Positions 1 to 38,281 of a DNA stretch of 48,303 nt are shown in pieces. The stretch comes from Muribaculaceae bacterium (GTDB taxonomy: Bacteria; Bacteroidota; Bacteroidia; Bacteroidales; Muribaculaceae): contig JAGAYZ010000038.1 in NCBI GenBank assembly GCA_017940245.1, positions 1 to 48,303 of the forward strand, in the 5' to 3' direction. The notes beneath the pieces were generated by a model, which saw only the letters and a program-made list of their open reading frames with translations, did not search any database and was not told the origin of the DNA. The first letter of the stretch is position 1, and each line of letters begins with the position of its first letter. A program made the position numbers and the translations under genes.

Positions 1-54
1 AGCCACCGGAACCCACACTTTTTCCCGATTTTTTCAATTAGGGGGGCTTACTTT

Positions 55-36427: not shown

Positions 36428-36547
36428 GCCGTGATAAACGCCGTTGTCATTTTGTCATCGCATGGAAGAGTCGCCGTAGCCAGGCCCTAGTTATCGTCGG
36501 CTTTGTGGTCATTTCAAGATACGCGCGAAAAAATATTTGCCAAATTG

Positions 36548-36578
36548 ATTGCAGATTGTGAAAAAATTTGTACTTTTG
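36548..36578 (+). promoter_or_regulatory. Bacteroidota-type promoter of rpsU
   Basis: ATTG (36548-36551), 19 bases and TACTTTTG (36571-36578) fit the TTTG/TAnnTTTG pattern with one mismatch. It predicts an RNA start at about 36583-36586, roughly 175 bases upstream of the rpsU start codon. The 120 bases between the DUF4421 stop codon and this promoter show nothing I can name. Confidence 0.65.
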
Positions 36579-36582
36579 CAGT

Positions 36583-36758
36583 CGCTAAAGTGAAAGGAGG
36601 TCGTTTCGATACTCACTAGGATAAAGATAAATCACATATAATCAAGCAGATGAGGCGTAGAGAAGCGCCTGTCGAGGCCGAAGGACATGCGCAGAGCATG
36701 GCCGCGTGCCGCAAATATAGAACTAAATATCAACAAAAATAAAAAAACAAAAAACATT
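36583..36758 (+). promoter_or_regulatory. Structured rpsU mRNA leader with Shine-Dalgarno core and 9-codon ORF
   Basis: The predicted message opens with AAAGTGAAAGGAGG: the octamer AAAGGAGG (36593-36600) is a perfect anti-SD complement. It is framed by AGTGA (36589-36593) and TCACT (36613-36617), so it can lie in a hairpin loop. No start codon stands at a normal distance after it. A 9-codon ORF from GTG 36590 to TAG 36619 overlaps it. Two further hairpins follow: AGGCG/CGCCT (36653-36670), and GGC/GCC with CATGC/GCATG inside (36676-36703). The last 50 bases are A-rich and unpaired up to the ATG. bS21 helps to hide the anti-SD in Bacteroidota ribosomes, so this leader may sense free anti-SD and control rpsU. 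That role is inference. Confidence 0.6.
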
Positions 36759-36950
36759 ATGATTATTGTACCTGTAAAGGATGGCGAGAACATCGAACGC
36801 GCCCTGAAGAAATTCAAACGTAAAACTGAAAAAACCGGTGTGATCAAGGAACTGCGCACCCGTCAAGCATTCCAGAAACCTTCTGTGACCAACCGTCGCA
36901 AGATGATGAAGGCCGTGTATGTGCAGCAGCTGCGTGCAAGCGAAGAGTAA
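36759..36950 (+). CDS. rpsU: 30S ribosomal protein bS21 (63 aa)
   Basis: The sequence MIIVPVKDGENIERALKKFKRKTEKTGVIKELRTRQAFQKPS is the standard bS21 of Bacteroidales, with the basic C-terminal part and normal length. The ATG at 36759 is chosen because the family starts MIIVPVK; the frame is open 24 codons further upstream through the leader. There is no Shine-Dalgarno site next to the start, just A-rich sequence. bS21 sits on the platform of the small subunit near the 3' end of 16S rRNA, and in Bacteroidota it takes part in sequestering the anti-SD. Followed by its own terminator and then xerC. Confidence 0.97.
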   Translation: MIIVPVKDGENIERALKKFKRKTEKTGVIKELRTRQAFQKPSVTNRRKMMKAVYVQQLRASEE

Positions 36951-36978
36951 TATCTCAGAACGATACACCGAAAGCATA

Positions 36979-37008
36979 AGCCAGAAACGAGAAGTTTCTG
37001 GCTTTTTT
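36979..37008 (+). terminator. Rho-independent terminator of rpsU
   Basis: A perfect 10-bp stem AGCCAGAAAC (36979-36988) / GTTTCTGGCT (36994-37003) with a 5-base loop is followed by six T. It ends the rpsU message before xerC. Confidence 0.9.
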
Positions 37009-37083
37009 CGTTAAAATGGGCAAAAAAGGTTGCAATTCTTAATTTTTTTTTATAATTTCGTGGCGAGCGTTTAAGTCATTGAG

Positions 37084-37989
37084 ATGATGAATGTGATTGT
37101 CGACCAGTTTATGCAATACATGCGCCTGGAACTCAACTACTCGGCGCACACGGTGGCTGCCTACGGCCGCGACCTGTGCCAGTTTGTGGATTTTCTTTCG
37201 GGCGAGAATAGCAGGCCTGTTGACTTGCTCGCGGTAGACAGCACCGATGTGCGCACCTGGCTGGCTCATCTGTCGCACGACGGCGACTGCGCGCGCACTA
37301 TGCGTCGCAAGGTGCAGGCGGTGAGGTCGCTCTACAAGTATCTCATGCGCACTGGGATGGTAGCCGAGAATCCTGCTGCCGACCTGGAGTTGGCACGCAC
37401 GGCACAACGGTTGCCCACGTTTGTGAGAGAAAAGAATCTGGCGGCATGGCTGGCGGTGAAGGTCGATGAGCAAGACGTGACGGCAGTGCGCGACCGGCTC
37501 ATGGTGATGATGCTCTATGAAACAGGCATGCGCAGGGCCGAACTCATTTCCCTGCTCGACCGCAATGTGGATACAGCAAAAGGCGAAATGCGCGTGCGTG
37601 GCAAGCGTGACAAGGACCGCATCATTCCCTTTGGCACGGAACTTGCAACATGGATAGAGCGGTATCGCCATTTGCGTGACAAGGCAGGCCAACGTGCCGA
37701 CACGTTGTTCACGCGACACGATGGCAGGCCACTATATCCGTCGCTCGTCTACCGTGTGGTGCACAGCGCGCTGGCTAGCGCGGGCGGCACCGACAAGATG
37801 AGCCCGCATGTGCTCAGGCACTCGTTTGCCACAGCCATGCTCAGCGACGGAGCTGGACTCGATTCGGTCAAAGAACTGCTGGGGCATGAATCGATAGCAA
37901 CGACACAGATTTATACGCACGTCACCTTGAGTGACATAAAGAATAATTATAAACTCGCCCATCCAAGGGCCCTAAAAAAAGGAGGATAA
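37084..37989 (+). CDS. xerC: Tyrosine recombinase XerC type (301 aa)
   Basis: An N-terminal SAM-like core-binding domain (about 5-95) precedes the catalytic domain (about 110-295). All six catalytic residues are present: Arg150 (TGMRRAEL), Lys174 (GKRDKDR), His242 and Arg245 (PHVLRH), His268 (LLGHES) and Tyr277 (QIYTHV). XerC with XerD resolves chromosome dimers at dif. Length and sequence are those of the chromosomal Bacteroidales protein that habitually sits between rpsU and hpf, so I do not read it as a mobile-element integrase. Two ATG codons stand in tandem at the start; I use the first. A possible weak promoter (gTTG ... TAATTTCG, 37029-37060) lies ahead. hpf follows after 1 base. Confidence 0.92.
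   Translation: MMNVIVDQFMQYMRLELNYSAHTVAAYGRDLCQFVDFLSGENSRPVDLLAVDSTDVRTWLAHLSHDGDCARTMRRKVQAVRSLYKYLMRTGMVAENPAADLELARTAQRLPTFVREKNLAAWLAVKVDEQDVTAVRDRLMVMMLYETGMRRAELISLLDRNVDTAKGEMRVRGKRDKDRIIPFGTELATWIERYRHLRDKAGQRADTLFTRHDGRPLYPSLVYRVVHSALASAGGTDKMSPHVLRHSFATAMLSDGAGLDSVKELLGHESIATTQIYTHVTLSDIKNNYKLAHPRALKKGG
37978..37985 (+). promoter_or_regulatory. Canonical Shine-Dalgarno site of hpf
   Basis: AAAGGAGG lies 5 bases before the hpf ATG (37991) and overlaps the last codons and stop of xerC. Such perfect sites are rare in Bacteroidota, and most other starts in this window lack one. Confidence 0.85.
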
Positions 37990-37990
37990 T

Positions 37991-38281
37991 ATGGAAACGA
38001 AAATCAAAGCCATCCACTTCGATGCAACTGAGAAATTACAGCTGTTCATCAACAAGAAAGTTGAGAAGCTTGTTAAGCATCACGAAGAAATCTCCGATGT
38101 AGAGGTCAACCTCAAAGTAGTTAAACCCGAAACCGCAATGAACAAGGAGGCTTCAATCAAGTTGCTTGTGCCCCAACGCGACGATTTGTATGCCTCGAAG
38201 GTGGCCGACACCTTTGAAGAGGCTGTGGATCAATGTGTGGATGCGCTCAAGCGCCAGCTCGAAAAGGGCAAAGACCGGTAA
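37991..38281 (+). CDS. hpf: Ribosome hibernation-promoting factor, short form (96 aa)
   Basis: It has the single HPF/YfiA fold (METKIKAIHFDATEKLQLFINKKVEKL, then VEVNLKVVKPETAMNKEASIKL, with the helix FEEAVDQCVDALKRQLEK). The length matches short HPF, with no dimerisation extension. HPF binds the decoding region of idle ribosomes and, with other factors, makes inactive 100S dimers in stationary phase. It starts 1 base after the xerC stop with a strong Shine-Dalgarno site, so it is translated from the xerC message, possibly at a separately set rate. A terminator follows at 38308-38345. In related genomes tRNA genes and tuf come next; here an unrelated minus-strand gene does. Confidence 0.93.
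   Translation: METKIKAIHFDATEKLQLFINKKVEKLVKHHEEISDVEVNLKVVKPETAMNKEASIKLLVPQRDDLYASKVADTFEEAVDQCVDALKRQLEKGKDR

What the first reader, a model, noticed from the sequence alone, without database searches (positions are those of the whole stretch)
36548..36758. rpsU leader with a 5'-end Shine-Dalgarno core in a hairpin loop
The predicted rpsU RNA starts with a perfect AAAGGAGG about 160 bases upstream of the ATG, in a loop framed by AGTGA/TCACT and overlapped by a 9-codon GTG ORF. Two more hairpins follow. Bacteroidota ribosomes sequester the anti-SD with help from bS21, and SD-linked autoregulation of rpsU has been described in Flavobacteriia. Here the SD does not stand before the start codon, so a different mechanism is implied: ribosomes lacking bS21 could bind the leader and change its fold or stability.
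Basis: partly seen in the sequence, partly recalled or inferred. Interest (0 to 1): 0.76.

Follow-up and report, generated by a model that had tools for sequence, protein, structure and literature searches.

The report
Remote ribosome-capture site before bS21 gene
In a group of gut bacteria that normally ignore the classic ribosome-landing signal, the gene for ribosomal protein bS21 carries a near-invariant strong copy of that signal at the front of its message, far from the start codon and with no start codon behind it, which suggests that ribosomes missing bS21 are caught there to restore the missing part.

Summary
The extended Shine-Dalgarno (SD) at 36592-36601 is real: ten bases (GAAAGGAGGT) complementary to the 16S tail of same-genus genomes (-16.5 kcal/mol). 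In the window alone it is no rarity; conservation is what counts. Of 87 same-genus rpsU loci, 86 have enough upstream sequence and all 86 carry it, 19-27 nt behind a promoter (47 and 49 nt in two), while SD-to-ATG distance varies from 165 to 351 nt. Of 24 changes in its nine core positions, 22 are A-to-G, which keeps pairing. Start codons are nearly absent at initiation distance (1 of 88; shuffles average 27), so it looks non-initiating. CATAT about 44 nt on, then variable hairpins, follow. The leader was also found in six other genera of the family and in a second Bacteroidales family. McNutt et al. 2023 showed that bS21-less ribosomes use an extended SD beside the rpsU start in Flavobacterium and that no Bacteroidales met their criteria; they scanned near start codons only. 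My reading: here this bS21 sensor sits at the mRNA 5' end and captures bS21-deficient 30S subunits. How capture raises bS21 output (tethering or mRNA protection) is unproven.

The parts
36571..36578 (+). promoter element TACTTTTG (TAnnTTTG type); RNA start inferred at about 36583-36586
   Evidence: TAnnTTTG lies 19-27 nt before the SD in 84 of 86 same-genus leaders (47 and 49 nt in two); no 5' end was measured
36592..36601 (+). extended, non-initiating Shine-Dalgarno GAAAGGAGGT, ten bases complementary to the 16S 3' tail ACCUCCUUUC
36597..36614 (+). weak hairpin that starts in the 3' half of the SD
   Evidence: (mean z -1.05 over 87 leaders); no consensus structure by RNAalifold
36635..36639 (+). 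conserved CATAT motif, 43 nt from the SD start here
   Evidence: CATAT at 35-65 nt in 82 of 85 same-genus leaders against 0.04 expected per 30-nt window from the rest of the leaders
36653..36670 (+). hairpin P3 (AGGCGT..GCGCCT)
   Evidence: in other clades its loop pairs downstream, not here (z +1.22)
36676..36710 (+). hairpin P4
36715..36758 (+). A-rich start region of rpsU without any SD
   Evidence: one search gives 0 kcal/mol for the window's rpsU start region
36759..36950 (+). rpsU, ribosomal protein bS21 (63 aa)
36978..37004 (+). terminator-like hairpin with T run; rpsU is probably a unit of its own
   Evidence: 1 found, shuffles mean 0.5

Best explanation
The rpsU leader carries a remote capture site for 30S subunits that lack bS21. 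In Bacteroidia the 16S 3' tail is buried in a pocket made by bS21, bS18 and bS6, so ordinary ribosomes cannot pair with an SD; a 30S subunit without bS21 can. The ten-base SD near the 5' end of the rpsU RNA pairs with that freed tail. Because no start codon follows at initiation distance, the subunit does not start there but is held on this one mRNA, close to the A-rich, SD-less rpsU start region, and initiates there more often than it otherwise would. Shown here: conservation, fixed place behind the promoter, pairing-preserving changes, avoidance of start codons, near-uniqueness of the promoter-plus-SD signature in each genome. Taken from published work in Flavobacterium johnsoniae: bS21-less ribosomes favour SD-bearing rpsU mRNA. 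Inferred: that these act on this leader, and that tethering rather than mRNA protection is the output.
For: 86 of 86 same-genus leaders carry it, found by best match to GAAAGGAGGT within 15-55 nt of a TAnnTTTG rather than by requiring it; 22 of 24 changes in the nine core positions are A-to-G, which pair with U (-15.6 against -16.5 kcal/mol); the 16S tail used was read from same-genus genomes G033 and G072. Start codon at 4-13 nt after the SD in 1 of 88 leaders, ATG in none; shuffles mean 26.8, lowest 16 of 1000; 26 leaders under 60% identity: 0, shuffles mean 7.6. Pattern TTTGC-5..30-GAAAGGRGGTY: 79 of 101 genus genomes, five hits for the reversed pattern in all. SD-to-promoter distance fixed, SD-to-ATG 165-351 nt, which suits a tether and not exact geometry. 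bS21 Tyr54, whose mutation in F. johnsoniae raises SD-dependent expression, aligns without gaps. In F. johnsoniae rpsU complexes form even without fMet-tRNA and bS21-depleted ribosomes are poor on SD-less mRNAs. One Bacteroidales genome (L104) has the same promoter-to-SD spacing with the ATG directly behind the SD.
Against: No RNA, binding or expression data. The leader lengths leave tethering unproven, and the conserved CATAT is not explained by it. The SD is not predicted to be better exposed than in shuffled leaders (mean unpaired 0.48 against 0.49 for GAAAGGA; 0.17 against 0.23 for GGU; 29 leaders). The 5' domain has no alignment-supported fold. TTG at 1-3 nt after the SD is common (47 of 88 have a start codon at 1-10 nt), though too close for initiation by usual rules. 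In the second family the SD is followed by ATG (L356) or TTG (L354, L359). Purine-to-purine change is also the commonest kind of mutation. Leaders are related, so counts are not independent.
Confidence: 0.5

Rival explanations
1. STAB-SD-like protection: a 30S subunit without bS21 sits on the 5' SD and shields the rpsU mRNA from decay; translation itself is done by ordinary ribosomes at the SD-less start.
For: The cry3A STAB-SD has the same layout: an SD near the 5' end, more than 100 nt before the start codon, that binds 30S and does not start translation (review PMC4113751, passages). RNase E/G, a 5'-end-sensitive endonuclease by general knowledge, is over the cut-off in 7 of 7 genomes searched.
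Against: RNase J, the exonuclease of the known case, reached the family cut-off in 0 of 7 genomes (five had weak partial hits only). It does not explain the conserved CATAT or the hairpins. No decay data.
Confidence: 0.25
2. The SD captures any 30S subunit or assembly intermediate with a free 16S tail, not specifically those without bS21, and acts as a general ribosome-load or assembly sensor.
For: The tail is complementary whatever the reason for its exposure; the tail is bound by bS6 and bS18 too (sections).
Against: The promoter-plus-SD signature sits at rpsU; of the other places three lay on contigs other than that of rpsU, one of them a tRNA gene, two not examined.
Confidence: 0.1
3. A protein-binding autogenous leader: bS21 or another protein binds the CATAT domain or the hairpin/pseudoknot domain, and the purine tract is part of that site rather than an SD.
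For: CATAT conservation; pseudoknot in one large clade with pair changes above all 500 re-dealings (153 of 169 cells, re-dealt maximum 148).
Against: No Rfam match; hairpin domain differs between clades and the window lacks the pseudoknot; the second clade's pseudoknot does not exceed re-dealt controls (159 of 176, maximum 159). The ten bases match the 16S tail exactly and change in the pairing-preserving direction.
Confidence: 0.1
4. The SD drives a short upstream ORF (leader peptide or start-stop) that controls rpsU.
For: In the second family L356 has SD-TTTA-ATG GAT TCT TGA and L354 SD-TTA-TTG TAA.
Against: In 88 mainly same-genus leaders a start codon stands at 4-13 nt in 1; a start overlapping the SD (ATG, GTG or TTG) in 38 of 88 and of varying kind.
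Confidence: 0.03

Closest known systems
bS21 autoregulation through an extended SD in Flavobacterium johnsoniae and other Bacteroidota (McNutt et al. 2023, PMC9976891)
   Same: Same gene, same kind of 16S-tail complement (10 bp, -16.5 kcal/mol, within their stated -13 or better), bS21 with Tyr54.
   Different: There the SD lies in the translation initiation region; here it is 165-351 nt upstream with no start codon behind it. They report that no Bacteroidales met their criteria; their scan covered the start region and, as a mock control, 25-40 nt upstream, so this site could not have been seen.
STAB-SD of Bacillus thuringiensis cry3A (review PMC4113751, passages read)
   Same: SD near the mRNA 5' end, far from the start codon, not used for initiation.
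   Different: Known case blocks RNase J1; RNase J not found at cut-off in 7 genomes here. Here only ribosomes with a freed tail should bind, and the gene served encodes the protein that hides the tail.
Autogenous ribosomal-protein leaders with pseudoknots (uS15, uS4 and bS6:bS18 types; recalled)
   Same: Structured leader of a ribosomal-protein gene, pseudoknot in several clades.
   Different: No Rfam family matched; the most conserved element is a 16S-tail complement, not an rRNA look-alike.

Membership tests
Extended-SD autoregulation of rpsU (McNutt et al. 2023) | rpsU mRNA pairs with the organism's own 16S tail at better than -13 kcal/mol | tested here: met
   -16.5 kcal/mol, 10 bp, tail from same-genus G033/G072; the window's own assembly holds no 16S
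Extended-SD autoregulation of rpsU (McNutt et al. 2023) | SD lies in the translation initiation region of rpsU | tested here: not met
   SD 167 nt before the ATG; rpsU start region 0 kcal/mol in the window, at or below -9 in 3 of 74 loci
Extended-SD autoregulation of rpsU (McNutt et al. 2023) | bS21 with the tail-contacting C-terminal part (Tyr54) | tested here: met
   gapless alignment to 7jil chain z over residues 1-61, Tyr at 54 in both (that 7jil is F. johnsoniae is recalled)
Extended-SD autoregulation of rpsU (McNutt et al. 2023) | expression rises when ribosomes lack bS21 | not testable with these tools
   needs depletion or mutant strains
STAB-SD | SD close to the mRNA 5' end and far from the start codon | tested here: met
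   (5' end inferred from the promoter)
STAB-SD | does not direct initiation | tested here: inconclusive
   no usable start codon in 87 of 88 leaders; initiation itself was not measured
STAB-SD | blocks 5'-3' exonuclease RNase J | tested here: not met
   TIGR00649 over cut-off in 0 of 7 genus genomes; RNase E/G in 7 of 7
Known Rfam ribosomal-protein leader | covariance-model match | tested here: not met
   0 matches in the window at gathering score; 8 loci at E up to 1 gave one unrelated hit
Leader-peptide (uORF) control | start codon at SD distance with a conserved ORF | tested here: not met
   1 of 88; exceptions in another family
Terminator attenuation | intrinsic terminator inside the leader | tested here: not met
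   only terminator-like site found in 36500-37120 lies after rpsU

The most novel reading that the evidence does not exclude
Bacteroidales keep a small SD regulon read only by ribosomes that lack bS21: rpsU through a remote 5' SD, and hpf (hibernation factor, two genes downstream) through a strong SD at its start. A defective 30S pool would then make both the missing protein and the factor that parks ribosomes. The SD moved from the start region to a 5' landing pad, so that ribosome composition is sensed without the sensor itself starting translation.
Probability: 0.15. Interest if true: 0.88.

Novelty: new variant of a known kind. Interest (0 to 1): 0.74.

Why it matters
If true, the specialised-ribosome circuit shown in Flavobacterium also operates in Bacteroidales, the order said to lack it, in another form: an SD that captures ribosomes without starting translation. 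It separates 30S recruitment from initiation, gives a natural test of tethering or standby loading, and warns that SD surveys limited to the start region miss such sites. The question becomes testable with a two-base SD change and a bS21 mutant.

Tried and rejected
Fold of the 5' domain: RNAalifold on 87 sequences gave no structure; a second small hairpin after the SD had no support (mean z -0.41, median +0.30). SD sequestration switch: anti-SD 6-mers in 5 of 88 leaders; SD exposure as in shuffles. Pseudoknot as a universal part: good in group B (35 leaders), not above re-dealt controls in group A (22), mean z -0.77 in 31 leaders with an automatic loop search, z +1.22 in the window. Rfam: nothing relevant. 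A general SD-leader class: the pattern and the profile model R1 find rpsU as the main target; one other hit is a tRNA-Asn gene. Phage bS21 genes: 5 viral loci found, leaders not examined.

It reads GGAACACC, not the recalled GGATCACC. The order-wide scan still used the recalled GGAUCACC form.

Full report
What is there. The window (G000, contig 20, 48303 bases) belongs to a genus whose named twins are labelled Muribaculaceae and, in one case, Candidatus Sodaliphilus (loci L001 and L006 are identical upstream to the unnamed L082 and L087). rpsU is 36759-36950 (63 aa, Pfam Ribosomal_S21). Upstream lie TACTTTTG (36571-36578), GAAAGGAGGT (36592-36601), CATAT (36635-36639), two hairpins (36653-36670, 36676-36710), an A-rich start region without SD, and after the gene a terminator-like hairpin (36978-37004).

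Chance and conservation. GAAAGGRGG occurs once in the window and in 42 of 100 shuffles at least once, so the single site proves nothing, although it is the strongest 16S-tail match in the window. Relatives decide. In the genus, 87 of 101 genomes gave an rpsU match; I took the upstream DNA of all 87. One (L147) is cut off at 138 nt. In the other 86, the best match to GAAAGGAGGT within 15-55 nt of a TAnnTTTG was at least 8 of 10, in 84 of them 19-27 nt behind the promoter and in two 47 and 49 nt. This scan did not require the motif. Changes: A-to-G 22 times, other core changes twice, position 10 four times. Both other core changes fall in L144, which reads GAAACGGAGGTGT, a shifted match (my reading). 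The 16S tail of the genus is GGAACACCUCCUUUCU (G033, G072); pairing is -16.5 kcal/mol, and -15.6 with the common A-to-G change. The window's own assembly has no 16S gene.

Not an initiation site. In 88 non-redundant leaders (selected by promoter plus SD pattern, mainly this genus) a start codon stands 4-13 nt after the SD in one (TTG), ATG in none. Shuffling the 35 nt behind the SD gives 26.8 on average and never fewer than 16 in 1000 rounds. For 26 leaders below 60% identity it is 0 against 7.6. TTG 1-3 nt behind the SD is common (47 of 88 have some start codon at 1-10 nt). The distance from SD to ATG runs from 165 to 351 nt, so SD and promoter are locked together while SD and gene are not.

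The rest of the leader. CATAT lies 35-65 nt from the SD start in 82 of 85 leaders, CATA in 85 of 85, against 0.04 CATAT expected per such window. RNAalifold found no structure in the 5' domain; a weak hairpin beginning in the SD has mean z -1.05 (87 leaders). Further down, group B (35 leaders) has a hairpin whose loop pairs with a downstream strand: 153 of 169 cells paired, re-dealt maximum 148 of 500 rounds. Group A (22 leaders) has a similar pseudoknot that is nearly invariant and not above re-dealt controls (159 of 176, maximum 159). The window's own clade has two hairpins that keep pairing through changes (7 of 22 pairs, four sequences) but no pseudoknot. The SD is not predicted to be more exposed than in shuffles, and no anti-SD is conserved in the leader.

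How unique and how wide. The pattern promoter plus SD was found in 79 of 101 genus genomes, with five hits for the reversed pattern; compared by eye, three places lie on contigs other than that of rpsU, one of them before a tRNA-Asn gene. A sequence-only profile of promoter, SD and CATAT (R1) searched in 198 family genomes matched 54 at E up to 0.01; of the 30 loci fetched, 27 lie at rpsU, 16 in the genus and 11 in six other genera. The weaker rows were not inspected. In 295 genomes of the order, 8 matched at E up to 0.001; besides the window, three genomes of one other family (f20: G301, G414, G510) have it at rpsU, while the hits in G303, G336, G377 and G404 are not at rpsU. In f20 a start codon does follow the SD in L356 (ATG GAT TCT TGA), closely in L354 and L359 (TTG). 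Named relatives such as Duncaniella muris (L019) and Prevotella pallens (L076) have a promoter near the gene and no GGAGG within 330 nt. Of 108 rpsU upstream regions across the order, scored with a recalled tail, three reach -13 kcal/mol in the last 30 nt; L104 stands out at -19.5 with AAAAGGAGGTGAT directly before the ATG and the same short distance to the promoter. That suggests, without proving it, that an SD once next to the start was pushed away by growth of the leader.

Mechanism. McNutt et al. 2023 (PMC9976891; outline, sections 32, 33, part 1 of 34, and passages) show in F. johnsoniae that bS21-deficient ribosomes favour rpsU mRNA through an extended SD, that such complexes form even without initiator tRNA, and that bS21 Tyr54 matters. 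They state that no Bacteroidales met their two criteria; they scanned the start region and used 25-40 nt upstream as a mock. Our bS21 has Tyr54 in gapless alignment. Hence the reading: a remote, non-initiating SD that holds bS21-less 30S on the rpsU mRNA. Shown: the sequence facts. Inferred: binding, homeostasis, output. The output may be delivery to the A-rich start, my first choice because depleted ribosomes are poor on SD-less mRNAs, or protection of the mRNA as for STAB-SD (review PMC4113751, passages). RNase J, the nuclease of the known STAB-SD case, reached its cut-off in 0 of 7 genomes; RNase E/G did in 7 of 7.

A neighbour worth noting. hpf (37991-38281, Pfam Ribosomal_S30AE) has AAAGGAGG directly before its ATG. 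In 74 loci where hpf could be placed, 62 have a start-region match of -9 kcal/mol or better, against 3 for rpsU. How common such SDs are genome-wide in this order was not measured.

Novelty. Searches of open-licence papers for rpsU, bS21, SD, leader and Bacteroidales terms (listings) and passages of a 2023 review (PMC10931766) showed no account of such a leader; the library lacks most subscription journals, and the supplement of McNutt et al. was not read. I call it a new variant of a known kind.

Noticed in passing
window 37975-37993: hpf (ribosome hibernation factor) has AAAAAAGGAGG five nt before its ATG; a start-region SD match of -9 kcal/mol or better recurs in 62 of 74 loci where hpf was placed, Prevotella included.
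   Followed up: partly
L180, L181, L183 (16S 3' ends): The 16S tail of this genus reads GGAACACCUCC instead of the GGATCACCTCC that I recalled as usual.
   Followed up: no
L104, upstream of rpsU: One genome of another Bacteroidales family has a very strong SD (AAAAGGAGGTGAT, -19.5 kcal/mol) directly before the rpsU ATG, close behind the promoter.
   Followed up: partly
L292/L356, L354, L359 (family f20): 5' SD leaders of rpsU in a second family; in L356 the SD is followed by ATG GAT TCT TGA, in L354 by TTG TAA.
   Followed up: partly
L344, directly upstream of rpsU: GAAAGGGGGGCGGAATGTAACATATAAGG before the ATG: an SD followed by a start-stop pair and a CATAT-like motif, in a 1.3-Mb genome.
   Followed up: no
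L067, L238, L239, L242: In other genera the SD leader coexists with a second TAnTTTG promoter close to rpsU, which would give a leader without SD as well.
   Followed up: no
L214 600-660: A tRNA-Asn gene whose precursor begins TTTGCACCGCAATTCCCGAAAGGGGGTTGTAAAACC, resembling the rpsU leader start; probably chance.
   Followed up: no
order-wide rpsU start regions, e.g. L106, L107, L299: Many other Bacteroidales families share GAAAGAGGTATT or GAAAGAGAGnGTATT just before the rpsU ATG, like an SD with a base missing.
   Followed up: no
L353, L360, L362, L363 (G336): Four near-equal R1 hits in one genome that are not at rpsU, perhaps a repeated element.
   Followed up: no
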